Below are positions 3,310 to 17,825 of a stretch of 64,000 nt of DNA, piece by piece (within the stretch, counting starts at the first letter, position 1; every line of letters begins with the position of its first letter). The stretch is from contig NZ_FOUJ01000002.1 in the NCBI RefSeq assembly GCF_900114835.1, positions 1-64,000 on the forward strand, written 5' to 3'. The position numbers were made by a program, and so were the translations under genes. Source of the DNA: Methanolobus profundi. Its GTDB lineage: Archaea; Halobacteriota; Methanosarcinia; Methanosarcinales; Methanosarcinaceae. The notes beneath the pieces are model-generated. The model had not been told where the DNA came from. It saw only the letters and a program-made list of their open reading frames with translations, and made no database searches.

Positions 3310-5151
3310 ATGGTCTCACAAAAAGCTGTACTAAACCTGATAAAAAAAGGTGAGGATGAAAAATTAATTTTCAAATCATATTCATTGACTAAGAACGTGA
3401 ATGAACTTGCGGGTACAATATCTTCAATTGCAGGTAACAAAGGCGGAGTTCTATTGATAGGAATAAATGAAGAGAATACTCCTGAAGGCATAGAATACAG
3501 CAAAGATGATGAGAATCTGATAATTCGGACATGTTCTGATACCTGTACTCCAATTGTAAGTTCCAAGGTATCTCATATTCACCTTGAAGATGGATGTGTC
3601 TACCACATAAAGATAGCAAAAACCAAAAAAAACCACAATTCTAAAAAGAAAGCTGAGATTATTGAAGATGATGGGACTTTTCTGTTCAATCATCTATACC
3701 AAGCATGCAACATCCTGCGCGGTCCTGTATCTGCTGATGAGTACAAAACATACATATTTCCAATTATGTTCTTTAAGCGCCTTTCTGATGTGTATGATGA
3801 TGAAATAAGGACAGCTCTGGAGGAATCTGAAGGTGATGAAGAATTTGCTCTTATGCCCGAGAATCACAGGTTTATAATCCCTGAGGATTGTCACTGGGAT
3901 GACATACGAGCAAAAAGCAGCAACATTGGATCTGCTATACAATTTGCAATGCGAGGCATTCAAAAAGAGAACCCTGACACTTTGTTTGGTATCTTTGACA
4001 GCTTTGATGAAGCAGAGTGGACCAATAAAGAAAAATTAAGCGATGACAGGTTAAAAGACCTCATTGAGCATTTTTCGTCTTTGAAATTAGATAATAACTC
4101 ATTCTCTGCTGATATAATGGGACAGGCTTATGAGTATTTGATTAAGAAGTTTGCTGACCTTACAAAGGACAGTGCCGGAGAGTTCTATACTCCGCGTGCT
4201 GTTGTAAAACTGCTAGTCAAATTACTAGATCCAAAAGCAGGAGATACAATATATGATCCAGCCTGTGGTACTGGTGGTATGCTCATTGAGGCCAAAAACC
4301 ATATAGGAGAGCAGAAACTGACATTAGGTAAATTATATGGTCAGGAGAAGAACCCCTCTACTTCTGCTATTGCACGTATGAACTTATTTCTGCATGGTGC
4401 TAACGATTTCAGGATAGTAAAGGGAGACACCCTGCGTAATCCGGTGTTCATTGCCAGTGATGAACTCAAAACTTTTGATTGTGTTATTGCCAATCCTCCT
4501 TTTTCCCTTAAATTATGGGGAGAGGATATATGGGTCAATGATCCGTATGGTAGGAATATATTTGGAGTTCCTTCTGATAGTAATGGAGATTTTGCTTGGA
4601 TACAGCATATGATTAAATCAATGTCTTCTGATACAGGACGTATGGCTGTGGTACTGCCACATGGTGTACTTTTCCGTGGTGATAATGAAGGGAGAATTAG
4701 ACAGAAACTCATTGAAAGTGATATGCTAGAATGTGTCATAGGTCTTGCTGGAAATCTGTTCTATGGGACAAATCTAGCTGCTTGTATTCTGATATTACAT
4801 AGGAATAAAGTGGCTGAGCACAAAGGCAAGACAATAATGGTGGATGGTTCAACAATCTTCAAGGCTGGAAGAGCACAAAATTTCCTAGAGGATGAGCATG
4901 TCGAGAAACTTTATGCGTGGGCAAGCGACTGGAAAGATGTTGAAGGTATATGTAAGGTAGTGTCTATTGATCAGATAAAGAAATATGAATACAATCTGAA
5001 TATTTCACATTATGTTGAAAAAATAACAACCGAAGATAGTATAACAATCAATGAAGCCATAAAGAACCTAAAGGATAATGTTGCAGCAGCTTATGCAGCA
5101 GAAGATAAGTTCATTAGTTTATTAAAGAGAGAGGGTTTGTTTAATGAGTAG
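3310..5151 (+). CDS. hsdM: type I restriction HsdM with N-terminal AlbA_2-like domain (M1)
   Basis: This is an adenine-N6 methyltransferase subunit of 613 residues, about 100 longer than usual HsdM proteins. Residues 12-105 match the AlbA_2/Schlafen-type domain pattern (EDEKLIFKSYS, then GNKGGVLLIGIN, then a VYHIKIAK strand). The HsdM part begins near 120 with the N-terminal helical domain. The AdoMet motif DPACGTGGM is near 316 and the catalytic NPPF near 395, both intact. The stop overlaps the next start by 8 nt. The extra domain could come from fusion of an upstream gene; it is not a normal HsdM feature. Confidence 0.88.
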   Translation: MVSQKAVLNLIKKGEDEKLIFKSYSLTKNVNELAGTISSIAGNKGGVLLIGINEENTPEGIEYSKDDENLIIRTCSDTCTPIVSSKVSHIHLEDGCVYHIKIAKTKKNHNSKKKAEIIEDDGTFLFNHLYQACNILRGPVSADEYKTYIFPIMFFKRLSDVYDDEIRTALEESEGDEEFALMPENHRFIIPEDCHWDDIRAKSSNIGSAIQFAMRGIQKENPDTLFGIFDSFDEAEWTNKEKLSDDRLKDLIEHFSSLKLDNNSFSADIMGQAYEYLIKKFADLTKDSAGEFYTPRAVVKLLVKLLDPKAGDTIYDPACGTGGMLIEAKNHIGEQKLTLGKLYGQEKNPSTSAIARMNLFLHGANDFRIVKGDTLRNPVFIASDELKTFDCVIANPPFSLKLWGEDIWVNDPYGRNIFGVPSDSNGDFAWIQHMIKSMSSDTGRMAVVLPHGVLFRGDNEGRIRQKLIESDMLECVIGLAGNLFYGTNLAACILILHRNKVAEHKGKTIMVDGSTIFKAGRAQNFLEDEHVEKLYAWASDWKDVEGICKVVSIDQIKKYEYNLNISHYVEKITTEDSITINEAIKNLKDNVAAAYAAEDKFISLLKREGLFNE

Positions 5152-6640
5152 GATATCTGTTGCTGAGCTTGAAAAATATCTATGGGACTCTGCGGTCATA
5201 TTACGTGGAAGCATGGCTGCTGGAAGTTATAAGCACTATTTGTTCCCATTGCTGTTCTACAAACGCATATGCGATGTCTATGATGAAGAGTATGCACATG
5301 CTTTAAAAGAATCTAATGGTGACGTTGATTATGCTATGTTCGCTGAAAATCATAGGTTCCAGGTTCCAAAAGACGCTCACTGGAAAATTATTCGTGAGAC
5401 TACCAGCAATATAGGCAGTGCTATCAAGAAGGCATTATCAGATCTCGAAAAAGCTAATGGGAAATTGCTTGAAGGTGTCTTTGGTAATGCTTCATGGACA
5501 AATAAGGACCGTTTACCAGATCATTTGCTAAAGGAGCTTATTGAGCATCTAAGTTCTCTTGTCCTCTCGCTTGAGAACTGTCCTGAAGATGAGCTTGGCA
5601 ATGGTTACGAATATCTGATTGGCAAATTCGCAGATGATAGTGGACATACTGCTCAGGAGTTCTACACTAACCGTACGATTGTTCACCTGATGACGGAACT
5701 TCTACGTCCTCAGCCAGGAGAGTCAATCTATGATCCCACATGCGGTTCAGCTGGAATGCTAATTTCTTCCATTGCATATCTTAAATCACAGAACAAAGAG
5801 TGGCGCAGTGTGAAACTTTATGGACAGGAGATAACTCCGCTCACATCTGCCATTGGTCGTATGAACCTGTTTCTGCATGGTGTTGAAAACTTCAAAATAG
5901 TGCAGGGTGATACACTAAAGGCTCCTTATTTCATCGCAAATGATAAGCTAATGCAATTTGATCTTGTTCTGGCAAATCCTCCGTATTCAATAAAACAGTG
6001 GAACAGAGATGCTTTTTCTAGCGATGTTTATGGTCGTAATTTCCTTGGAACTCCCCCTCAAGGAAGGGCTGATTATGCCTTTTTCCAGCATATTCTGAAA
6101 AGCCTTGACCCAGAGAATGGTCGATGTGCAATATTGTTCCCACATGGCGTTCTTTTCCGAAAGGAAGAAATGGAGATGCGTAAGAAACTTGTAGAAACGG
6201 ATCTGGTGGAGTGTGTTATTGGTCTTGGGTCAAACTTGTTTTTTAATTCAGCAATGGAAGCATGTATTGTAATATGCAAGTCAAATAAAGATAGTATTCG
6301 AAGGAATAAAGTCTTATTTATAGATGCTAAAAAAGAAGTGTCCAGAAATGGAACATATAGATATTTAGATAAAGAGCATATTTTGAAAATCGCAAGTGTG
6401 TATCATGAATTCAGATCAGAAAACATTTTTTCATTGATTGTAGACACTTCAGATATTCTTCAAAACTCTTCGGATTTAAGCATAATAAAATATATCAAAC
6501 CAAAATCACAAAACAAAAAAGAATATTCTGAACAAGATTATTCTATACTACTGCATCGTTGGTTATACCAAAAAGATCTGATTAAAAAGGATATAGATTT
6601 GTTAATACATTCCATAGATGGAGATGATCTTAATGTTTAA
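5144..6640 (+). CDS. hsdM: type I restriction HsdM (M2)
   Basis: A second adenine-N6 methyltransferase subunit of 498 residues, normal for HsdM. It shares the layout of M1 but is clearly diverged: the AdoMet motif is DPTCGSAGM (near 197) and the catalytic motif NPPY (near 278). The N-terminal helical domain aligns with residues 125-170 of M1. Both active sites look intact, so a mixed M1-M2-S methylase is plausible instead of the usual M2S with identical subunits. It overlaps M1 by 8 nt and HsdS by 8 nt. Confidence 0.9.
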   Translation: MSRISVAELEKYLWDSAVILRGSMAAGSYKHYLFPLLFYKRICDVYDEEYAHALKESNGDVDYAMFAENHRFQVPKDAHWKIIRETTSNIGSAIKKALSDLEKANGKLLEGVFGNASWTNKDRLPDHLLKELIEHLSSLVLSLENCPEDELGNGYEYLIGKFADDSGHTAQEFYTNRTIVHLMTELLRPQPGESIYDPTCGSAGMLISSIAYLKSQNKEWRSVKLYGQEITPLTSAIGRMNLFLHGVENFKIVQGDTLKAPYFIANDKLMQFDLVLANPPYSIKQWNRDAFSSDVYGRNFLGTPPQGRADYAFFQHILKSLDPENGRCAILFPHGVLFRKEEMEMRKKLVETDLVECVIGLGSNLFFNSAMEACIVICKSNKDSIRRNKVLFIDAKKEVSRNGTYRYLDKEHILKIASVYHEFRSENIFSLIVDTSDILQNSSDLSIIKYIKPKSQNKKEYSEQDYSILLHRWLYQKDLIKKDIDLLIHSIDGDDLNV

Positions 6641-7757
6641 CAAATCATCATGGAAATCTGTTCAATTTGGTGATGTGGTCACTAATATAAATTCGTATTT
6701 TGATAGAAACAATACTGGAGTATATCCATACATTGCAGGACCTGAAATTACAGAAGGAAATTTACATGCTACACCCAGTTTTGCTGAAGTTGATGAAATC
6801 CCTCCTACATTTAAAAGAATATTCCTACCAAATGATGTGTTGTATCATTCTAGAAACGTAGAAAAACTAGCTGTCTCTGAGATAAAAGGGATTACAGGAG
6901 AAAAATTATTTGTATTGAGAACAAAGGATTCGTCATGTATTCTTCAAGAGTATATTCCATTCATGATGATGACAAATAAGTTTAAGCAAGAAATTAAATC
7001 ACGCTTAACAGGATCATGTAATAAATTTTTAAACTGGTCTGCACTAGCAAGTACAGTTTGTGAAATCCCTCCTCTTGATGAACAGCAGAGAATTGCTGAA
7101 TTGCTATGGGCAGCAGATGAAATGATAGAAGCATATGATTTGATTTACAATGATTTATCATCGTTAAAAAGCAAATTTGTGGATACATACTTTGATTCAA
7201 AGCCCAATAAATCAAAATTGAGTGAACATTGTATCAATATCACTACTAAATATGGCAAAGATGAAAGTGAAGAAAATTGTGTCGAATTAAAATGCTTAGA
7301 ACCTCATACTGGAAAAATCACATATTTTGTCAAAAAAGATAAAAATGCTTCTTCATACAATGTATTTTCAAAAGGAGACGTATTATTTGGTAAATTGCGA
7401 CCATATCTTCGAAAATACACGCTCGCATCTCAAACGGGAATTGCATGTTCGGAGATATTGGTTCTAAGAGCAAATCAAAATATTATGCCTGAATATTTAT
7501 ATGAAATTATCCAAAGCAATTCATTCATAGAATATAATTCACATTTGTCATATGGTACAAAAATGCCACGAACGTCCTGGAAATTAATAGCTGACTATGA
7601 GTGTTATGTTCCTTCACTTGATGAACAAAAAGCTTTTGTTTCAAAAGTTAATAATATTTCTGAAAATATGACACTAGTAAAACAACAAATATTAGGAAGT
7701 AAATTATTATTAAATCATTTGTTTGAAAAAATCTACGGATGCGCATCCAATGTTTAA
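6633..7757 (+). CDS. hsdS: type I restriction specificity subunit HsdS
   Basis: This subunit recognises the DNA target for both methylation and cleavage. ATG 6633 is chosen because GGAGATGAT precedes it; it overlaps the stop of M2 as ATGTTTAA. The 374 residues hold two target-recognition domains (about 1-135 and 195-330), each followed by a helical spacer. The conserved boundary PPLDEQQRIAELL lies near 150 and its counterpart PSLDEQKAF near 330. The two domains are dissimilar, so a bipartite asymmetric target is expected. It is more AT-rich than its neighbours, as is common for specificity genes that recombine. Confidence 0.88.
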   Translation: MFNKSSWKSVQFGDVVTNINSYFDRNNTGVYPYIAGPEITEGNLHATPSFAEVDEIPPTFKRIFLPNDVLYHSRNVEKLAVSEIKGITGEKLFVLRTKDSSCILQEYIPFMMMTNKFKQEIKSRLTGSCNKFLNWSALASTVCEIPPLDEQQRIAELLWAADEMIEAYDLIYNDLSSLKSKFVDTYFDSKPNKSKLSEHCINITTKYGKDESEENCVELKCLEPHTGKITYFVKKDKNASSYNVFSKGDVLFGKLRPYLRKYTLASQTGIACSEILVLRANQNIMPEYLYEIIQSNSFIEYNSHLSYGTKMPRTSWKLIADYECYVPSLDEQKAFVSKVNNISENMTLVKQQILGSKLLLNHLFEKIYGCASNV

Positions 7758-10644
7758 CGAAGAGAATACAACTGAACAGATGATAATCGCCACTGCAAAA
7801 AACAATGGGTGGACCTATATTAAAGCAGAAAAGCTTCCACGCAAGTACAGTGACGTTCTGGTGGAACAATATCTTGCAGATGCACTCATTCGATTAAATC
7901 CGGAGATAGCTGCACAACCACAGAGAGCAGATGAAGTTCTGTATCGCTTGCGAGCTATTCTGTTATCCTGTGAAGGCGAAGGGATAGTACGTGCAAATGA
8001 ACACTTCACATCATGGCTACGGGGAGAAAAGACAATGCCTTTTGGTGAGAATGGGGAGCACACACCTGTCAAACTTATTGATTTTGAGGATTACTCCAAT
8101 AACCAGTACATAGTCACAAACCAGTGGGTATATCCAGCAGTGGAGAACGGAAAACGTCTTGACATCACACTATTGGTCAATGGGATACCATTGGTGATAG
8201 GAGAATGCAAGACCCCGGTACGACCTGCAATAACATGGGTGGATGCAGCAGAGGACATCAATAATTATGAAAAGAGTATTCCACAAATGTTCGTATCAAA
8301 CGTGTTCAACTTTGGGACAGAAGGCAAATGCTACCGTTATGGGTCAATAAAGATGCCATTGAAGAACTGGGGACCATGGTATTCTGATGAGGACCATAGC
8401 GAAGGAACCATTGAATCAGTTAGAAGAAGCATAACATCCATGATTAGAACAGATGTCATACTCGATATGGCAATGAACTTTACGACCTTTGCTACCAACA
8501 AGAAACACCAAAGAGTAAAAATAATTGCTCGCTATCAGCAATACGAAGGGGCAAACATGATAGTTGACCGTGTAGTAGCAGGAATGCCCAAGAAAGGACT
8601 TATCTGGCATTTCCAAGGATCTGGAAAATCGCTACTTATGGTGTTTGCAGCTCAGAAACTAAGAATGCACCCTGCACTTAAGAACCCCACTGTGATAGTG
8701 GTTGTGGATCGCACAAACCTTGATACACAAATCACAGCCACGTTCAATTCAGTCGACATACCCAATATACAAGGCGCAAGCAAAATAGCGGAGCTGACTA
8801 AGTATCTAAAGCAGGATACACGAAAGATACTAATTACAACGATATTCAAGTTCAGAGATGTCACAGAGACACTCAATGAACGTGAGAATATCATAGTGCT
8901 GGTAGACGAAGCTCACAGAACACAGGAAGGTGATCTCGGATTAAAGATGCGTCTTGCACTTCCCAATGCATTCATGTTCGGTCTTACAGGTACACCGATT
9001 AATAAACTTGACAAGAACACATTCGTAACCTTCGGTGCAGATGAAGACGAGCGCGGATATATGAGCAGATACACCTATGTTGATTCAATAAAAGATGGGG
9101 CAACCCTGCCACTGCATTTTGAACCCGTGGAACCAAAACTACATATCAAACGTGATGCTATCGACCAAGCTTTTGATGCTATGACAGATCAGCTATCAGA
9201 CGATGATAAGGATGAACTGACAAAAAAAGCAGCAAAAATGGCAGTTCTGCTCAAGTCCCCTGACAGAGTACAGGCAGTCTGTGGACACATTGCCAATCAT
9301 TTCCAGACAAAGGTACGTCCAAATGCATTCAAAGGACAGGTTGTTACCTTTGACCGTGAATGCTGCGTTTTGTACAAGAATGAACTGGACAAGCTGTTAG
9401 GGCCTGAAAGTTCTGCAATTGTCATGCATACAAACAATGACAAAGGAAATAAGTTTGCTCAATACAGACTCAGCAAAGATGAGGAAGAGAAGCTGCTGGA
9501 CCGTTTCAGGGATCCTTCAGATCCATTGCAGCTTCTTATCGTAACAAGCAAGCTTCTCACAGGCTTTGATGCACCAATATTGCAAACCATGTATTTGGAC
9601 AAGGCAATAAAGGACCACAGCCTGTTACAGGCTATCTGCCGAACAAATCGTATCTATAAGAACAAGACACACGGTCTGATAGTTGATTACCTTGGCATCT
9701 TTGATAACGCTCTATTTGCGTTACAGTTTGATGAACAAATAATGAAGAAGGTAATCACTGACATTGCAGATATCAAAGAAAAGTTACCTGAACTTGTGGT
9801 AAAATGCTTGTCTTATTTCCCAGACATAGACCGCACCTTATCAGGATATGAAGCTCTTGAAGAAGCTCAGAATTGTTTGAAAACTGATGAGGTCAAAGAT
9901 TCCTTTGCTGCAAATTTTTCAGTACTACACAACGCATGGGAAGCCCTTTCTCCAGACCCAATACTTGCCAGCTATGAATCAGATTACAAATGGCTTTCAC
10001 ATGTTTATGAATCACTTAAACCTGTATCAGGCATGGGTTCACTGCTCTGGCATTCATTTGGTGCAAAGACCATCGAACTAATCCACAAAAACGTTGTAAT
10101 CGACGAGGTACGTGATGATCTTGAAAATATGATTGTTGACGCTGATTTGCTGGAAGGCATGTTTTCTGGCAACCCTGATAAGAAAGGCAGAGAGATAGAG
10201 ATCGTACTCATTGCCCGTTTGAGGAAACATGCACAGAATCCGGTATTCATAGAACTTGGAGAACGACTTGATAAGCTTCGGTTAAAGCATGAACAGGGTT
10301 TGCTCAACAGCATTGAGTTTCTGAAATCACTACTGATACTTGCCAAGGATGTGGTCGCTGCTGAACAAAAAGTAGAACCTGTAGATGAACAGGAGAAAGC
10401 AAAATCCGCACTTACAGAACTATTCATAGAGGCAAAATGTGAAAAAACACCTGCGATTGTAGAAAGGATTGTTAATGATATTGATGAGATTGTGCGTGCA
10501 GTACGCTTCCCAGGATGGCAGAATACTTCTGAAGGAGTCAGGACTGTAAAACAAAGCCTTCTCAAGACAATACGTGTCAAATATAAAATCACAGACAAGG
10601 AAGTTTATGATAAGTCGTACTCATATATTGAGATGTATTATTGA
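7750..10644 (+). CDS. hsdR: type I restriction endonuclease/translocase HsdR
   Basis: This is the motor and nuclease subunit of the type I complex. ATG 7750 overlaps the HsdS stop by 8 nt in the same ATGTTTAA arrangement as the M2/S junction. The 964 residues hold an N-terminal nuclease domain with LVIGECK (lysine of the PD-ExK motif near 152), a helicase domain with Walker A GSGKS (near 290), DEAH (near 385) and LTGTP (near 415), and a long helical C-terminus that binds the methylase. All key residues are present, so the enzyme should be active. Confidence 0.92.
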   Translation: MFNEENTTEQMIIATAKNNGWTYIKAEKLPRKYSDVLVEQYLADALIRLNPEIAAQPQRADEVLYRLRAILLSCEGEGIVRANEHFTSWLRGEKTMPFGENGEHTPVKLIDFEDYSNNQYIVTNQWVYPAVENGKRLDITLLVNGIPLVIGECKTPVRPAITWVDAAEDINNYEKSIPQMFVSNVFNFGTEGKCYRYGSIKMPLKNWGPWYSDEDHSEGTIESVRRSITSMIRTDVILDMAMNFTTFATNKKHQRVKIIARYQQYEGANMIVDRVVAGMPKKGLIWHFQGSGKSLLMVFAAQKLRMHPALKNPTVIVVVDRTNLDTQITATFNSVDIPNIQGASKIAELTKYLKQDTRKILITTIFKFRDVTETLNERENIIVLVDEAHRTQEGDLGLKMRLALPNAFMFGLTGTPINKLDKNTFVTFGADEDERGYMSRYTYVDSIKDGATLPLHFEPVEPKLHIKRDAIDQAFDAMTDQLSDDDKDELTKKAAKMAVLLKSPDRVQAVCGHIANHFQTKVRPNAFKGQVVTFDRECCVLYKNELDKLLGPESSAIVMHTNNDKGNKFAQYRLSKDEEEKLLDRFRDPSDPLQLLIVTSKLLTGFDAPILQTMYLDKAIKDHSLLQAICRTNRIYKNKTHGLIVDYLGIFDNALFALQFDEQIMKKVITDIADIKEKLPELVVKCLSYFPDIDRTLSGYEALEEAQNCLKTDEVKDSFAANFSVLHNAWEALSPDPILASYESDYKWLSHVYESLKPVSGMGSLLWHSFGAKTIELIHKNVVIDEVRDDLENMIVDADLLEGMFSGNPDKKGREIEIVLIARLRKHAQNPVFIELGERLDKLRLKHEQGLLNSIEFLKSLLILAKDVVAAEQKVEPVDEQEKAKSALTELFIEAKCEKTPAIVERIVNDIDEIVRAVRFPGWQNTSEGVRTVKQSLLKTIRVKYKITDKEVYDKSYSYIEMYY

Positions 10645-10825: not shown

Positions 10826-12598
10826 TTACTCTTTATTACTACTCTCAAAATTCAACTTGGGAAACTCATAGAGATAGTCTGAGGATATGAAAAATAACGG
10901 TGTACCTGCAAAGGAGAGTGGAGAAACTGGACCAACTGCCATAAATGGATACTCTTTCTTATGTAAGCTGCTTTGAGGGTCACGAAACTGTTGATAAAGT
11001 TTAATCATTTCAGAAGCACCACCTATTAACTCCTTTAGAGCCAACAGTTCTATACCCCAACCTAGTCCAAAACCAAAAAAACTAATTCTCATCTGATTCA
11101 AAATTTCTCGGTGCAAGCTGTACAGACTTTGACTCACAAACATCCATCCAAGACCATATTTACGTGTTGTTCTTACAGAATCAATAAATGTTGTCCGGAC
11201 TTCACTTAAAAAGTCATTTTCAGGTTTTTCTTTTGGTGCAAGTCGATGAGCTTCGTCTGCAATTACTAAAGTATTTAAAAGTCTATTTGACTTATACTCT
11301 GTTTCTGCCTGCATGGTCAGTTCTTTTAGTAGCTCTCTGATTACCAAAAATCTGATATTCTCTGTCCAGAGAATATCTAATGGTGCACTTGTTTCAGAGA
11401 GATCTACAATTACTATTTTTCCTTCATTATTGCTTGTGATTTCAGAAACAAGGGTTTCAATTTTTTTTGATTTATTATTATTTCTATCACTGAACAAATT
11501 AGCAATTTTTCTCCAAGATTCATAAATGGCATCTTCGTCTAATTCCAATGCACTGCGAACTTTTTCTTGCCCATCCTTACCAGAATATATCTTGACAAGC
11601 TGTTTTTCCTCTAAAAGTTCAAGACGAAGGAGATCAAATGATTTTCTTTCATGGGCTTTCTCTATTTTAATAGGTTTTAAGAGATGCTTATTTGAAGATC
11701 TTTTTTGAAGAATATTCACAATAGTTGTAGCAGCTCTTTCTTGATTGTCATCAGCTACAATGTTCATACGTTCTTTTAAAAAACCAGATGCAATTAAAAC
11801 TTCCTTAAATAAATTATAGCCATTTCCACTTAATACAAGATTTTGAATACTTACTACTTCTACAGATCGGTTTAATGAAGATAGAATCTTATTAAGAATT
11901 CCACCCTCTCTTATTTCTTTTGAAAATTCACCTTGTGGATCTAAAACCAGAATTGACATATCTTTATGTCTTGCATAACCTGAAAGGAGCATTTTTGCAA
12001 CAACTGATTTTCCTGAACCTGTCTTTCCAAAAACACCTATATGATAAGCTTCTCCGGCTCCATCAGGACCCTTGCCAAAATGTTTTAACCACATTGGTAG
12101 AGGTATATTTGTCCCATAGGCATTACCTAAATAAAATAGTTCCTCACTGAATTCATCTAGCATAATATTCAGAAAATCTTCTTCAATCTGCTTTATTGGT
12201 GTACCAGTGGGAGGCACCGTTCGTAGCATACTTTGTTCGACGTTGTGTGAAGTATCTGTGGAAAATACAGCACTGACCATCATTTTTGCATTGTGAGTAT
12301 CCTGTCGCTCTGTAATCGGATCAACTCTTCCTCTCTGCCTTACTAGGCCTTTCATTGTTGGATCCTGAAGCCAAATATTTTGCATCTGAACTTCTGTAAT
12401 CTGTCCAAGTGCATAATGATTTAATGAATCTTGGTCATATTTGAATACACAAAGAGAACCAACTAATCCTTTATTTGAAGCTGAACCTAATATATCAATT
12501 AAAAATCCGTTTGTTGACGAAGGGGAACCGACAACCCCAAGTCTTTCTGCTTTATCAAACGTTGTTTCCACTGTTGATTCGTTGCTCATTTTTCTCAC
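10826..12598 (-). CDS. herA: HerA-type hexameric DNA translocase
   Basis: This is a HerA/FtsK-superfamily ATPase of 590 residues that forms hexameric DNA pumps with NurA. GTG 12598 overlaps the stop of nurA by 4 nt; ATG 12589 is an alternative. The N-terminal 150 residues form a HAS-barrel-like part. Walker A GKTGSGKS is near 192 and Walker B VIADEAHR near 445, followed by SVRTTRKYGLG and VSQSL segments typical of HerA. It lies in a defence island, convergent with the type I operon and divergent from a methyltransferase/GHKL pair, so a defence role rather than housekeeping end resection is likely. Confidence 0.85.
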   Translation of the reverse strand: MRKMSNESTVETTFDKAERLGVVGSPSSTNGFLIDILGSASNKGLVGSLCVFKYDQDSLNHYALGQITEVQMQNIWLQDPTMKGLVRQRGRVDPITERQDTHNAKMMVSAVFSTDTSHNVEQSMLRTVPPTGTPIKQIEEDFLNIMLDEFSEELFYLGNAYGTNIPLPMWLKHFGKGPDGAGEAYHIGVFGKTGSGKSVVAKMLLSGYARHKDMSILVLDPQGEFSKEIREGGILNKILSSLNRSVEVVSIQNLVLSGNGYNLFKEVLIASGFLKERMNIVADDNQERAATTIVNILQKRSSNKHLLKPIKIEKAHERKSFDLLRLELLEEKQLVKIYSGKDGQEKVRSALELDEDAIYESWRKIANLFSDRNNNKSKKIETLVSEITSNNEGKIVIVDLSETSAPLDILWTENIRFLVIRELLKELTMQAETEYKSNRLLNTLVIADEAHRLAPKEKPENDFLSEVRTTFIDSVRTTRKYGLGWMFVSQSLYSLHREILNQMRISFFGFGLGWGIELLALKELIGGASEMIKLYQQFRDPQSSLHKKEYPFMAVGPVSPLSFAGTPLFFISSDYLYEFPKLNFESSNKE

Positions 12599-13710
12599 CC
12601 CGTTCGATACCCATGCATTGATAGATATAGATCACCCAGTGAACCGTCCCAATTAATTGCCATATTTTGAGTAGCAGTTTTGCGTATCGCAGGTAAACCC
12701 ACATTTAAGTTTTTTACCATTCTATCTGCAAGATAAAGAGGATAAGGTTCCAAAAGTCCTATCGAAGACTGTGACTTAATTCCCTCTAAGAGTATACCTA
12801 ATCGATGCCTGTTTTTTGCAATAGAAGTCGATATTTCTATTCTAATTGCAGGACAATGTATGTAAGGCTTATAATATAGAATTTGGAGCTCTTTAAGTTC
12901 TTTAACAACCTTTTCTCTAAGCATCTCCACTTTTTCAGTCGAATTTTCAATATTCCAACCCTTTGAAGGGACTTCCATTGGCATAGGTCCAACCACTTCT
13001 CCAGGATTCAGAAGTAAAGACAATATACCTCTGTCTTCAGTATTCTGAATATTTATTTTCTTGCTGACTTCCTTCCTTGTAGTGTACTTTGGAATGCTAA
13101 CGAACATTTGGTCTGTTTTTCGTGAGGATAAAATGGAATAGTAGTTTTCAAAGGTCTCATCGATTTGTTTCAAGAAAACATGTGAAAGTGCCTCAGGTGA
13201 ATCCTTTATTCTATAAAATGCTTGGCTTATATGGATGAATGGAGTAGTGAATGAGCCATCGAGTAAAACAATGTCATGAGGGGCATTTTTAGCAAGTGAT
13301 GATTCAAAACACATCATTAGAGCTCTCCCTACAGTTTCGGTAGCTGCACTGTGAGACAAGTTTAGTATTTTTGGAATATGCCTAGGAATAGGCCAATACC
13401 TTTCTTCTGTAGGTGGAGTTAAACCTTCAACAGCAACTGCTGCCACAGCAATAATATCAGTAAAAAGTAGTTTCTCGAGTGAATATGCACCATCTACTCC
13501 ACAAACTGTAGGATAAGTAGGGGATTGGATATAGTAAGTATCAGGTTTTAATAACTCTGAATCGATCAGAATTTGTCGATAATCTTCTTTCTTACTTATA
13601 AGCTCGTCAAATGAGGTAAATAGCTGGCTACTAATATTTTCGCATTCAGATAGCATATTTTCCACTAATGCTTCAGGCAGCTGGGAAAATGGACTATCGT
13701 TATCATGCAT
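12595..13710 (-). CDS. nurA: NurA-family 5'-3' nuclease
   Basis: NurA nucleases work inside the HerA ring to degrade DNA ends and need manganese. The 371 residues show the first catalytic block GVDGA (near residue 72), an inner LLDGS block near 149 and conserved basic segments towards the C-terminus. The start ATG at 13710 lies about 20 nt downstream of a TATA-like element on the minus strand, so the transcript is short-leadered. It overlaps herA by 4 nt. In most archaea herA-nurA sits with mre11-rad50; here neither is present, and the pair looks like a defence-specific paralogue. Confidence 0.8.
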   Translation of the reverse strand: MHDNDSPFSQLPEALVENMLSECENISSQLFTSFDELISKKEDYRQILIDSELLKPDTYYIQSPTYPTVCGVDGAYSLEKLLFTDIIAVAAVAVEGLTPPTEERYWPIPRHIPKILNLSHSAATETVGRALMMCFESSLAKNAPHDIVLLDGSFTTPFIHISQAFYRIKDSPEALSHVFLKQIDETFENYYSILSSRKTDQMFVSIPKYTTRKEVSKKINIQNTEDRGILSLLLNPGEVVGPMPMEVPSKGWNIENSTEKVEMLREKVVKELKELQILYYKPYIHCPAIRIEISTSIAKNRHRLGILLEGIKSQSSIGLLEPYPLYLADRMVKNLNVGLPAIRKTATQNMAINWDGSLGDLYLSMHGYRTG

Positions 13711-14091
13711 ATAATAGTATAGTAGTAATGTTGTATAAATATCTATTTAAATAAATTGAACTTTGCCCCCCCCAGTTTTTTCAAACGATGCGAACCAGAG
13801 AATATTCTTTAACAGCCATGTTTTTCCGCGTGATTAAAAACAAAAAGTATATCAAAGATAGCTAAATAAATACATGAATACTTAAAATTTATATTTATTC
13901 GAATATGGACGAAAAGTACTCTCTCAGAATAGATCTCACAGACGGTAATGGTCTATATTGACCGAGGAAGAATTCACTTCAAAAAGAAACTAGCGTTGCT
14001 CTTGTACATACTTATATAATTTGATAATATTATATCACATGATTATAGCAGATTAGAAAACGATTCTTTTTGAGAGGGTGTGATTTGTTTT
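13711..14091. promoter_or_regulatory. divergent promoter region between nurA and the methyltransferase
   Basis: About 380 AT-rich bases without a gene. A leftward TATA-like ATATTTATAC (minus strand, about 13732-13742) serves nurA. A rightward TATA-like CTTATATAATTTG (about 14009-14021) would start transcription near 14040. Just after it lies the near-palindrome TGATAATATTATATCA. A run of eight C is found at 13766-13773 and could vary in length. The two arms of the HerA-NurA/methyltransferase-GHKL group are therefore probably controlled together. Confidence 0.45.
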
Positions 14092-15357
14092 ATGATGACG
14101 ATATCCAATGTTACAGAAACTGATTTTGATTCAATACCAATTGATCCTTTCTGGAACACTGGTGACGAAAAAGAGCTAAAAATGCATAAGATTCATACAT
14201 ATCCTGCTAAGTTCCCAGCATTTATAGCAAGCAAAGCATTCGATTATGCGAAAGAAAATTCTATCGAGGTTAATACAGTAGCTGACGTTTTTTGTGGCTG
14301 TGGAACCGTTGCATTTGAAGCAAAACGTTCAGGAATTGATTTCTGGGGTTGTGACATCAATCCTGTAGCAACCATGATTGCAAAAACGAAAAGCCATAAG
14401 TACCAAGTATCTAGACTTCAACGGTATTTTGATGATATTATAGATACTTACAAAACATCGATTATTGAATACAATTCCTATGATTATGCAAACGAGAGAT
14501 TGAAATATTGGTATGATGAATCTCACTATGGGCATTTATTGCGGTTGAAGGCTGCTATTGAAAGTTGTACCCCTGCAAAAGGACAATACCGTTCATTTTT
14601 CATTTGTGCATTTTCAAATATTCTAAAACCTACGTCTCGCTGGCTTACAAAATCAATAAAACCACAAGTTGATCCGGATAAAGAGCCGTCTGATGTCCTA
14701 GAAGCATTTGAAAACCAATGCAGTTTCATGTTTGCTGCAAACGAAGAAATCTATTCATTAAATAAAACAAAAACCTGCATTGTAAAAGGGAATTTTTTAG
14801 ATAATCGTATTGTTAAACCTGAAGTAGATGTAATAATCACAAGCCCTCCGTATGTAACTTCTTATGAATACGCAGATTTACATCAATTGTCATCCCTTTG
14901 GCTTGGATTTGCTGAAGATTATCGAGAATTGAGAGACGGCTCGATAGGAAGTCTTCACCATGTTTATGATTTTGATAGGGAGTTAGAATATCTTAATAAT
15001 GTAGGCGCCCATATTGTAACACAACTATTAACTCAGTATAAATCAAAAGCCTACTCAGTTGCCAAATATTTCTTGGATATGCAACAGGTTGCTAAAAACT
15101 GCCACTCTATGCTTTCCGAAAATGGTCTTGCAATCTTCATCATTGGAAACACTGAGTATAAGGGTGTTAGGATAGACAATGCACGTCATCTTGCGGAATC
15201 TCTCCAGAATAGTGGATTCAATGAGATCCTTGTTACAAAACGTAAAATTAGTAATAAAATACTAACTCCTTACAGGGATAGTAAGGGTCGATTCACTGCA
15301 GATGGGAATGGTAGAAAAGTTTACAATGAAGAGTTTATTCTGGTTGGAAAAAAATGA
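14092..15357 (+). CDS. site-specific DNA methyltransferase (SPPY type)
   Basis: This is an AdoMet-dependent DNA methylase, probably acting on an exocyclic amino group (N4-cytosine or N6-adenine). ATG 14092 is used; a GTG at 14080 closer to GAGAGGG is possible. The order is an N-terminal HTYPAKFP segment (near 31), an AdoMet loop FCGCGT (near 67), and the catalytic SPPY (near 250) followed by SYEYADLHQLSSLWLGF-like residues. The stop overlaps the start of the GHKL/nuclease gene by 4 nt. It may protect host DNA from that nuclease, or mark the DNA the nuclease attacks. Confidence 0.85.
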   Translation: MMTISNVTETDFDSIPIDPFWNTGDEKELKMHKIHTYPAKFPAFIASKAFDYAKENSIEVNTVADVFCGCGTVAFEAKRSGIDFWGCDINPVATMIAKTKSHKYQVSRLQRYFDDIIDTYKTSIIEYNSYDYANERLKYWYDESHYGHLLRLKAAIESCTPAKGQYRSFFICAFSNILKPTSRWLTKSIKPQVDPDKEPSDVLEAFENQCSFMFAANEEIYSLNKTKTCIVKGNFLDNRIVKPEVDVIITSPPYVTSYEYADLHQLSSLWLGFAEDYRELRDGSIGSLHHVYDFDRELEYLNNVGAHIVTQLLTQYKSKAYSVAKYFLDMQQVAKNCHSMLSENGLAIFIIGNTEYKGVRIDNARHLAESLQNSGFNEILVTKRKISNKILTPYRDSKGRFTADGNGRKVYNEEFILVGKK

Positions 15358-17825
15358 AATCGATTGAAACTTGTGGGAATGTAGTTGACAGCATTGATGT
15401 AAAAATAAGCTACCGAATTATCGAATTGTTTTCTGGCGGCTTGTACTCAAGTCCGAATAAAGCATTTGAAGAACTCGTCTGTAATTCATATGATGCTTTT
15501 GCAGATGAGGTTGCAGTCTATGTTCCTCCTGATCTAAATGTGGATGGTGCATATATATGGGTGTGTGATAACGGCGAAAGTATGGATCAACAAGGTTTGA
15601 AAGATTTATGGAACATAGGTCAATCACTAAAGAGAAACAATGAATTTGTTGATAAAAAGCGTCTTCAAATAGGGAGATTTGGAATTGGTAAATTAGCAAC
15701 ATATATCTTAGCACATAAATTAACATATATTTGTAAAAAGAATGGTAAATTTCTGGCAACTACAATGGATTATGGGGACATTACTGCTAATGTTGAGAAG
15801 CTACAATTAGATGAAAGAGAAATTACAGAAGAGGAAGTGCAAATGGTATTGGCCCCTTATCTCTCTTCATCTAACACTAATCTGCTACCATTTGATCTTT
15901 TTGGAGATAATGCTGTTGAAACATGGACATTTTCGCTTCTAACTGAATTGAAACCAAAAGTACATGATATCAAAGAAGGACGCCTCAGATGGGTTCTAAG
16001 TACAGCTTTACCACTTAACCCCGGGTTTTCACTTCACTATAATGGTAATCTAATAGAATCATCAAAAATAAAGAGACCTATACGCAAAACATGGATTATA
16101 GGCGAAGATGATCAGACTGCAGAAGAATTAGATTTCGCATCTATAAGACAAGAAAATGGAGACTTTTTTGTTGATTTTGATAATCTTACAGGAGTCAATG
16201 GTAAAATAGAGTTATACGAAGATTCTCTAGTGGACCGCAGTAAGTCAAATGAGTTGGGAAGAAGTCATGGTATTTTTTTAATCGTCCGAGGCCGTCTTGT
16301 AAATATAGATGATCCACTTTTGGGAATGCCAGCATTTTCCCATGGACCATTTAACAGATCAAGAATAGAGATACATGCTGATGGGTTGGATGATAATCTG
16401 ACTTCTACTCGTGAATCAATTAAAGAATCATTGCCCCTTGATCAATTAAAGGCGTATCTTAAAAAGAAATTCAATAACGAAGTCAAGAAATACCATTTTG
16501 AAGAGCAAAATCGTTTGTCGAAGGAACAAAGTATTTCTTATAGGCTATCTCAGACTTCACTGACTCTTTCAAAGAGACCTCTCTATACATTTGCAGAAAA
16601 ATTCTATGATGGTGCAATAGTAAATCCTATTCTCATAGAAAAGCCTCCTCTTGATAAAAAAGAAGTTTTGTTGGAAGAACTTAAAAGAGATGTATCCGGT
16701 GAGGAGTCAATCATCAAAAACATCGAATGGAGTATTTTAGGTTCTGGTGACCCAATTGGTAAACTTGATTTGACTAATGGAAATTTAAAAATAAATCTTC
16801 TCCACCCCTATATTGCTAACTATAGTGATTCTTATAAAGATACATTACCCGTTCAATTTGTCGCCATTACAGAGGTCTTAACTGAAGCTCATTTGTATGA
16901 ACTTGGGGTTGACGAATCAATAGCAAATACTATTATGAGGCGAAGAGACAATACTTTAAGAAGACTATCACTGTCTGATCGTGAAGGAGCCCCTGCGGTA
17001 GCTCAGATGCTTAGAGAAGCACAAGTTGATTCAACCGGTCTTGAAGATGCGGTACATCGAGCATTTCTTTCATTGGGTTTTGAGTCTACAAAAATAGGTG
17101 GTCCTGGAAAACCTGATGGTAAAGCCGATGCAGTTCTTGGATATATAAATGAAACTATGCACAATAATTATTCTCTAACATATGATGCAAAAAGCACATC
17201 AAAAGAGAAAATTACAGCAGGCACTGCTAGGATTTCTTCGATAAAAAGACATCAGACTGATTATAATGCTGACTACTCTGTTGTAATTGCTATTGATTAT
17301 GAAGGTAGAAACGATCCGAATAGTGCTATTTCAAAAGAATCAAAACAACAAAAAGTGACTATTATGACTGTTCAGGACTTGAGCAGACTTTTATTGCTAT
17401 CTGTACCTAAGCAGATTGGACTTTTAAAAATAAGAGATTTATTTGAAACATGTCATACTCCTGCAGAAGTTACTGAATGGATTGATAGTGTTGAATCTGA
17501 AGAAATAACCATAGGCCCCATAGGAGATATCTTGGAAGCGATTTATGATTTACAACTAAATGATACCGAGCCGCCGGAGTTTGCAGCGGTACGTCTAAAA
17601 GTAAACTCTATTAATGGTAATTCTTTGTCTAAGAAAGAATTACAGTCACTTATTGAAAGCTTAAAGGTATTAGTGCCTGGTTTCATAGATATAGAGGGAG
17701 AACGTGTAGGTATCCAAGGCACCCCTTCTAGAATACAACGTGTTATCAATCATGCAATAGGCAGCGTACCTAGTGATTTACAGAAAATGTATTTATCCGC
17801 TTTTTCTTCAAAAGTAGAAAATTAA
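15354..17825 (+). CDS. GHKL ATPase fused to a probable PD-(D/E)XK nuclease region
   Basis: This 823-residue protein begins with an Hsp90/MutL-type GHKL ATPase fold: N box EELVCNSYDAFAD (near 40-52), G1 CDNGESMD (near 70) and G2 GRFGIGKLA (near 107). A middle domain and long helical parts follow. Residues 570-690 resemble a Mrr-like restriction fold: a helix AVHRAFLSLGF, then PDGKADAV and a strand ending in YDAKST, which fits the D...(D/E)xK catalytic pattern. The end (730-815) is helical. It is coupled to the methyltransferase by a 4 nt overlap. I do not know a named family with this exact layout; the nuclease part is inferred from motifs. Confidence 0.75.
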   Translation: MKSIETCGNVVDSIDVKISYRIIELFSGGLYSSPNKAFEELVCNSYDAFADEVAVYVPPDLNVDGAYIWVCDNGESMDQQGLKDLWNIGQSLKRNNEFVDKKRLQIGRFGIGKLATYILAHKLTYICKKNGKFLATTMDYGDITANVEKLQLDEREITEEEVQMVLAPYLSSSNTNLLPFDLFGDNAVETWTFSLLTELKPKVHDIKEGRLRWVLSTALPLNPGFSLHYNGNLIESSKIKRPIRKTWIIGEDDQTAEELDFASIRQENGDFFVDFDNLTGVNGKIELYEDSLVDRSKSNELGRSHGIFLIVRGRLVNIDDPLLGMPAFSHGPFNRSRIEIHADGLDDNLTSTRESIKESLPLDQLKAYLKKKFNNEVKKYHFEEQNRLSKEQSISYRLSQTSLTLSKRPLYTFAEKFYDGAIVNPILIEKPPLDKKEVLLEELKRDVSGEESIIKNIEWSILGSGDPIGKLDLTNGNLKINLLHPYIANYSDSYKDTLPVQFVAITEVLTEAHLYELGVDESIANTIMRRRDNTLRRLSLSDREGAPAVAQMLREAQVDSTGLEDAVHRAFLSLGFESTKIGGPGKPDGKADAVLGYINETMHNNYSLTYDAKSTSKEKITAGTARISSIKRHQTDYNADYSVVIAIDYEGRNDPNSAISKESKQQKVTIMTVQDLSRLLLLSVPKQIGLLKIRDLFETCHTPAEVTEWIDSVESEEITIGPIGDILEAIYDLQLNDTEPPEFAAVRLKVNSINGNSLSKKELQSLIESLKVLVPGFIDIEGERVGIQGTPSRIQRVINHAIGSVPSDLQKMYLSAFSSKVEN

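What the first reader, a model, noticed from the sequence alone, without database searches (positions are those of the whole stretch)
15354..17825. GHKL ATPase with a Mrr-like PD-(D/E)XK region in one chain
The N, G1 and G2 boxes of a GHKL ATPase lie at residues 40-115, and a nuclease-like PD..(D)AK pattern at about 587-612 follows a helix typical of Mrr folds. G1 is DNGES instead of DxGxG, so the ATP lid could work differently. A gated nuclease on a single chain, next to a methylase, would be an unusual restriction factor.
Basis: partly seen in the sequence, partly recalled or inferred. Interest (0 to 1): 0.7.

Follow-up and report, generated by a model that had tools for sequence, protein, structure and literature searches.

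The report
ATPase-gated restriction enzyme with methylase partner
This archaeal gene encodes one protein that joins an Hsp90/MORC-type ATP-driven clamp to a DNA-cutting domain shaped like the FokI and HindIII restriction enzymes; it sits beside a DNA methylase, and because the same pair recurs across many bacteria and archaea it is most likely a mobile, ATP-controlled restriction-modification system of a variant that no library searched here describes in full.

Summary
Window 15354-17825 (+) encodes an 823-residue protein with an intact GHKL ATPase (E39, N44, D47, D72, G74, glycines 107/110/112) and a PD-(D/E)XK nuclease core (E564, D588, D611, K613). In 51 aligned relatives these residues are invariant, or D/E at 588 and 611. 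Residues 17-390 fold like MORC3/Hsp90 (Z 21.3). The nuclease domain, folded alone (pLDDT 92.9), fits FokI (Z 15.2) and HindIII (Z 13.6) better than Mrr-type proteins.

The gene overlaps an upstream N4/N6-type DNA methyltransferase by 4 bp. A methyltransferase gene adjoins 53 of 58 family loci, and its class and gene order change between lineages: a two-gene restriction-modification cassette spread between archaea and bacteria. The neighbouring HerA, NurA and type I genes are not part of it.

The DNGES G1 box is not special (S in 35, G in 15, A in 1 of 51). A GHKL-nuclease on one chain is known in kind (paraMORC3/VcSduA; BbrUII/HgiDII family), but this family matches those only in the ATPase part or in domain order. 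Verdict: new variant of a known kind. ATP-gated cutting is inferred, not shown.

The parts
14080..15357 (+). DNA methyltransferase, N4-cytosine/N6-adenine type (motif I DVFCGCGT at residue 69, motif IV TSPPY at 254-258, with about 180 residues between them); probable modification gene. The ATG at 14092 or 14095 may be the true start
   Evidence: Pfam N6_N4_Mtase E 4.8e-13; PADLOC MTase_II E 8.6e-42; homologous gene next to the GHKL gene in most relatives
15354..17825 (+). GHKL ATPase-nuclease, 823 aa; probable restriction endonuclease; start overlaps the methylase stop by 4 bp (ATGA)
15402..16523 (+). Residues 17-390: GHKL plus S5-like ATPase module
   Evidence: Fold match to MORC3 Z 21.3 (308 aligned, 3.9 A), Hsp90 Z about 20, SMCHD1 Z 20.0; HATPase_c_3
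15468..15494 (+). N box, residues 39-47 (E39, N44, D47)
   Evidence: invariant in 51/51 relatives
15567..15584 (+). G1 box DNGESM, residues 72-77
   Evidence: D72, G74 51/51; residue 76 S35/G15/A1
15672..15692 (+). G2 box GRFGIGK, residues 107-113
   Evidence: G107, G110, G112, K113 51/51
16410..16412 (+). Arg353 in LTSTRESIK; resembles the catalytic-arginine segment (LNxSRE) of Hsp90
   Evidence: invariant 51/51; comparison with Hsp90 is from memory, not aligned residue by residue here
16524..16979 (+). Residues 391-542: middle region (helices and a small sheet), candidate DNA-binding or coupling region
   Evidence: predicted secondary structure only
16980..17459 (+). Residues 543-702: PD-(D/E)XK nuclease domain of FokI/HindIII type
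   Evidence: model pLDDT 92.9; FokI Z 15.2, HindIII Z 13.6, BspD6I small subunit Z 13.4; HindIII by sequence profile E 0.002
17043..17192 (+). Active-site residues E564 (17043-17045), D588 (17115-17117), D611 (17184-17186), K613 (17190-17192)
   Evidence: E564 and K613 51/51; D588 D42/E9; D611 D39/E12
17460..17822 (+). Residues 703-823: C-terminal region, predicted H-H-H-E-E-H-H order compatible with a winged helix; candidate target-recognition domain
   Evidence: secondary structure of the model; no meaningful sequence match; fold not searched on its own

Best explanation
A two-gene, type II-like restriction-modification cassette. The upstream N4/N6 methyltransferase marks the host's own target sites. 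The 823-residue protein is the restriction endonuclease. Its N-terminal GHKL-S5 module most likely dimerises when it binds ATP, as MORC, MutL and Hsp90 do, and closes around DNA. This brings two C-terminal FokI/HindIII-type nuclease domains together so that both strands of unmethylated foreign DNA are cut; ATP hydrolysis resets the clamp. Shown by computation: both domains, their conserved catalytic residues, the fold matches, the conserved pairing with a methyltransferase, replacement of the methyltransferase by other classes, and presence of the family in both archaea and bacteria. Inferred: ATP-dependent dimerisation, DNA clamping, cleavage, the target site, and that methylation blocks cutting.
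For: GHKL catalytic motifs and nuclease residues conserved in 51 relatives. GHKL-S5 fold match to MORC3, Hsp90 and SMCHD1. Nuclease fold match to FokI, HindIII and BspD6I, all type II or type IIS enzymes, with a HindIII profile hit that lines up YSLTYDAKS with HindIII YGLVADAKS. 4-bp gene overlap with the methyltransferase. Adjacent methyltransferase in 53 of 58 loci, upstream, downstream or convergent. Partner classes differ: the main family with TSPPY, about 297 aa TSPPYWGQR type in L071 and L073, 235-269 aa type in L041, L043 and L047, and m5C type in L058. Distances of the two partners co-vary: Mantel rho 0.56, 0 of 2000 permutations as high. The tree mixes archaea with bacteria.
Against: No activity data. 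A target-recognition domain was not identified by homology. In L038 the methyltransferase has been exchanged (32-33% identity to those of L017 and L037) while the endonuclease stays 77% identical along its whole length, so either the two methyltransferases share one target or recognition is not encoded only in this chain. Four relatives lack a methyltransferase next door despite available flank (L019, L040, L062, L066; L019 is very remote). Adjacency counts include a few near-duplicate genomes.
Confidence: 0.72

Rival explanations
1. A Shedu-like or paraMORC3-like single-protein anti-phage nuclease: the GHKL domain senses phage-specific DNA structure or infection and unleashes the nuclease; the neighbouring methyltransferase is a frequent but non-essential companion.
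For: VcSduA has the same GHKL then PD-(D/E)xK order; both its active sites are needed for phage defence (PMC12137116). Some relatives lack an adjacent methyltransferase.
Against: 53 of 58 loci do have an adjacent methyltransferase, with short overlaps in many. No Pfam DUF4263 match in any member; E. coli SduA is only Z 6.5 against 15.2 for FokI.
Confidence: 0.13
2. Recognition lies in the methyltransferase, which works as specificity subunit for the GHKL nuclease in one complex, as in type I enzymes; the GHKL chain is a non-specific, ATP-gated cutter.
For: In L038 the methyltransferase is swapped while the GHKL-nuclease stays 77% identical with no divergent block. Methyltransferases are less conserved than the GHKL protein (mean 32% vs 40%).
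Against: Partners as unlike as m5C, 297-aa and 420-aa amino-methyltransferases would be hard to dock on one surface. Some partners are only 235 aa.
Confidence: 0.1
3. A modification-dependent or DNA-repair enzyme: a MutL/NucS-like nuclease that acts on damaged, mismatched or modified DNA, with a methyltransferase that supplies a strand or identity signal.
For: GHKL-S5 modules are shared with MutL (established knowledge). The nuclease also resembles AspBHI (Z 9.2) and EndoMS (Z 7.9) at lower scores.
Against: Patchy spread across distant phyla, typical of mobile defence rather than of core repair. No full-length homologue in the 26 other species of the same genus searched.
Confidence: 0.05

Closest known systems
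BbrUII/HgiDII family restriction enzymes (NCBIfam NF050001; M.HgiDII recognises GTCGAC)
   Same: Single-chain GHKL-domain restriction enzymes next to a DNA methyltransferase; N-terminal ATPase half matches (residues 19-381, E 3.5e-19)
   Different: Score 68.8 bits against a cut-off of 550; no match to the C-terminal half. A homologue scoring 374.5 bits to that model (L020, 659 aa) has no match to this nuclease profile. Partner methyltransferase there is m5C, here N4/N6 type
paraMORC3 / GHKL-Shedu protein VcSduA
   Same: N-terminal GHKL ATPase followed by a C-terminal PD-(D/E)XK nuclease in one chain; proposed ATP control of the nuclease (PMC2292703, PMC12137116)
   Different: Nuclease there is DUF4263/RecB-like; here FokI/HindIII-like. 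A subset of paraMORC3 are stand-alone genes; here a methyltransferase partner is the rule
FokI cleavage domain and HindIII
   Same: Nuclease fold and catalytic pattern: KPDG ... DxK of FokI (D450, D467, K469, from memory) and DAK of HindIII
   Different: FokI and HindIII are ATP-independent (from memory) and have no GHKL module
MORC ATPases (MORC3, MORC2)
   Same: Best solved folds for residues 17-390 (Z 21.3)
   Different: Carries a nuclease; MORC-specific S5 motif is met except at the polar position; no CW zinc finger found by Pfam
Mrr (Mrr_cat, PF04471)
   Same: Marginal profile match to the nuclease domain; 25 of 47 relatives match at E up to 0.5
   Different: E. coli Mrr is modification-dependent and lacks GHKL (from memory); FokI and HindIII are the closer solved folds

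Membership tests
GHKL ATPase superfamily | N, G1, G2 boxes and Bergerat fold | tested here: met
   HATPase_c_3 E 9.7e-18; invariant E39, N44, D47, D72, G74, G107, G110, G112; fold Z 21.3 to MORC3
PD-(D/E)XK nucleases of FokI/HindIII type | Fold of the cleavage domain | tested here: met
   FokI Z 15.2, 144 of 160 residues, 2.3 A; HindIII Z 13.6; model pLDDT 92.9
PD-(D/E)XK nucleases of FokI/HindIII type | Catalytic D ... (D/E)xK residues conserved | tested here: met
   588 D/E and 611 D/E in 51/51, K613 51/51; HindIII catalytic segment aligned by profile
PD-(D/E)XK nucleases of FokI/HindIII type | DNA cleavage activity | not testable with these tools
   needs purified protein
Mrr_cat (PF04471) | Score above Pfam cut-off of 21 bits | tested here: inconclusive
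   17.2 bits for the whole chain, 21.6 bits for the domain alone
Type II restriction-modification system | Endonuclease gene paired with a DNA methyltransferase gene | tested here: met
   53 of 58 loci
Type II restriction-modification system | Both enzymes act on the same DNA sequence | not testable with these tools
   no methylome or cleavage data
BbrUII/HgiDII family (NF050001) | Score above the curated cut-off over the full length | tested here: not met
   68.8 vs 550 bits, residues 19-381 only
Shedu (DUF4263) | DUF4263 nuclease domain | tested here: not met
   no DUF4263 among the Pfam matches of P0001 or of 47 relatives
Shedu (DUF4263) | SduA nuclease fold | tested here: inconclusive
   E. 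coli SduA Z 6.5, a generic PD-(D/E)XK similarity
MORC family sensu Iyer 2008 | GhXhhpXXRhl motif in the S5 domain | tested here: not met
   GIFLIVRGRLV at 306-316 fits except the polar position, V311 (motif from PMC2292703)
paraMORC1-5 | Membership of one of the five families of Iyer 2008 | tested here: inconclusive
   no sequences of those families could be compared; paraMORC3 has the same domain order

The most novel reading that the evidence does not exclude
A widespread, previously unnamed class of ATP-dependent type II restriction enzymes in which an Hsp90/MORC-type clamp dimerises on DNA and thereby assembles two FokI-like half-nucleases, and which exchanges its methyltransferase partner freely because target recognition or protection is shared in an unusual way.
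Probability: 0.4. Interest if true: 0.75.

Novelty: new variant of a known kind. Interest (0 to 1): 0.55.

Why it matters
Prokaryotic MORC/MutL-like ATPases in restriction loci were proposed in 2008 to be the source of eukaryotic chromatin ATPases, but their mechanism is still little tested. Here ATPase and nuclease lie on one chain of about 820 residues with a single partner gene, so the link between the ATP cycle, DNA clamping and cleavage can be tested directly. The FokI-type domain, known to cut as a dimer, suggests a simple way for ATP-driven dimerisation to switch on cutting. None of the Pfam, NCBIfam and PADLOC models that matched covers the full chain, so such systems are probably under-annotated.

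Tried and rejected
HerA, NurA and HsdR of the window as parts of the system: no homologue of any of the three was found in any of the relatives' loci, and NurA is absent from the 39 related genomes searched. Known defence systems by PADLOC: only the ATPase part matches, to REase_II, TmtA and MzaB models. HgiDII membership: rejected by score and extent. The first search of genome contigs with the single protein found nothing; the alignment found 50 loci. No match in phage records, three partial ones in plasmids. Finding a target-recognition region from co-divergence with the methyltransferase gave no clear peak, and the swap pair L017/L038 showed no divergent block. The C-terminal region against PDB sequences gave only troponin C and similar chance hits. 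A recalled FokI cleavage-domain sequence scored best of 1000 against the nuclease profile, but weakly (E 0.037, with 999 shuffles as decoys). The full-length fold search shows only GHKL matches, so the nuclease was folded alone.

Full report
Observation. The ORF at 15354-17825 (+) is intact, 823 codons from ATG. Pfam finds HATPase_c_3 at residues 32-157 (E 9.7e-18); Mrr_cat at 557-680 is below its cut-off for the whole chain but just above it for the domain alone (21.6 bits).

Relatives. In related genomes full-length homologues are rare: one at 74% identity in the same family, two at 51-52% in the same phylum, and one at 49% in the same order. An alignment of these retrieved 50 loci from bacterial and archaeal genomes and 3 from viral contigs, nearly all full length at 28-69% identity. 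Hosts include Methanoperedens, Methanophagales, Micrarchaeota and Woesearchaeota, Kiritimatiellales, Verrucomicrobia, Clostridia, Bacteroidota, Actinomycetota, Chloroflexi and Proteobacteria. In a maximum-likelihood tree the window sequence and two other archaeal sequences group with Kiritimatiellales and Verrucomicrobia, while other archaeal members sit elsewhere among bacteria. This indicates repeated horizontal transfer.

Active sites. Over 51 aligned sequences E39, E40, N44, D47, D72, G74, G107, G110, G112, K113, R314 and R353 are invariant. So are E564, G589, K613 and S614; 588 is D (42) or E (9) and 611 is D (39) or E (12). Both active sites are therefore under selection in the whole family. 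Residue 76, the second glycine of the classic DxGxG, is S in 35, G in 15 and A in 1, so the unusual G1 box carries no special meaning. R353 lies in LTSTRESIK, which resembles the LNxSRE segment with the catalytic arginine of Hsp90; that comparison is from memory.

Fold. The full model (mean pLDDT 83.8, pTM 0.58) matches MORC3 (Z 21.3, 308 residues, 3.9 A), Hsp90 (about 20) and SMCHD1 (20.0) over residues 17-390. The nuclease domain (543-702) predicted alone reaches pLDDT 92.9 and pTM 0.88. It matches FokI (Z 15.2, 144 residues, 2.3 A), HindIII (13.6) and BspD6I (13.4 and 12.9), well above AF1548 (10.5), AspBHI (9.2), EndoMS (7.9) and E. coli SduA (6.5). A sequence profile of the domain finds HindIII in the PDB (E 0.002), placing YSLTYDAKS on HindIII YGLVADAKS. 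The label 'Mrr-like' is thus not wrong at the superfamily level, but FokI/HindIII-like is the better description.

Context. The upstream gene (14080-15357) is an N4/N6-type DNA methyltransferase whose stop overlaps the start of the GHKL gene by 4 bp. A methyltransferase gene adjoins the GHKL-nuclease in 53 of 58 loci: 51 by a profile of the window's enzyme, one cut off by a contig end (L050) and one of m5C type (L058). Gene order varies: upstream overlapping, downstream, or convergent. At least three other methyltransferase types replace the main one, and the tree needs at least two changes for the 235-269 aa type. Where the main type is present, partner distances correlate (Mantel rho 0.56, none of 2000 permutations as high). 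HerA, NurA and the type I system next to it in this window are absent beside the relatives, so they are neighbours in a defence-rich stretch and not parts.

Mechanism. The simplest reading is a restriction-modification cassette with an ATP-dependent endonuclease. GHKL modules of MORC, MutL and Hsp90 close into dimers on ATP binding (established knowledge), and FokI cuts both strands only as a dimer of its cleavage domains (established knowledge). Coupling the two gives ATP-gated assembly of a double-strand cutter. This step is inferred. How the target is recognised is open. The middle region (391-542) and the C-terminal region (703-823), whose predicted element order would suit a winged helix, are candidates. 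The L038 case, where the methyltransferase was exchanged for a distant one while the nuclease chain stayed 77% identical throughout, means that either both methyltransferases share a target or recognition does not lie in this chain alone.

Known and new. GHKL proteins in restriction loci, some with RE-fold nuclease domains, were described in 2008 (PMC2292703). VcSduA, a GHKL-DUF4263 chain, was shown in 2025 to need both ATPase and nuclease residues for phage defence (PMC12137116). The BbrUII/HgiDII family of restriction enzymes is GHKL-based too (NF050001). This family shares the plan but not the nuclease type, the full-length models or the m5C partner. Whether part of it was among the paraMORC families of 2008 could not be checked. 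Searches of open-access papers found no description of a GHKL-FokI/HindIII-type enzyme; most subscription papers and REBASE were not available.

Noticed in passing
window 3310-7757: Type I restriction locus with two consecutive HsdM-like genes: a 613-aa one with a Schlafen AlbA_2 domain (E 9.8e-12) fused in front of HsdM, and a 498-aa one, followed by HsdS and HsdR (7723-10644).
   Followed up: partly
window 10826-13710 (-): HerA-like ATPase (590 aa) and divergent NurA nuclease (371 aa) pair between the type I locus and the methylase-GHKL pair; NurA not found in 39 related genomes searched.
   Followed up: partly
L043:10499-11206, L047:10475-11191 (and L041:10476-11285): Small convergent methyltransferases beside the GHKL-nuclease in Woesearchaeota and Micrarchaeota; in L043 and L047 the usual (S/D/N)PPY catalytic motif reads HLPYW.
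   Followed up: no
L034:10468-12693 and L044: A second GHKL gene (741 aa) with two HATPase domains, one at each end, directly downstream of the GHKL-nuclease and followed by a 407-aa gene; may resemble the HEF_HK/paraMORC-like genes of PMC8011034.
   Followed up: no
L020:8889-10868 and 12503-13750: BbrUII/HgiDII-like GHKL restriction protein (374.5 bits to NF050001) near a probable m5C methyltransferase in another genome of the phylum.
   Followed up: partly
L038: Natural exchange of the methyltransferase beside an almost unchanged GHKL-nuclease (77% identical to L017, methyltransferase 32%).
   Followed up: yes
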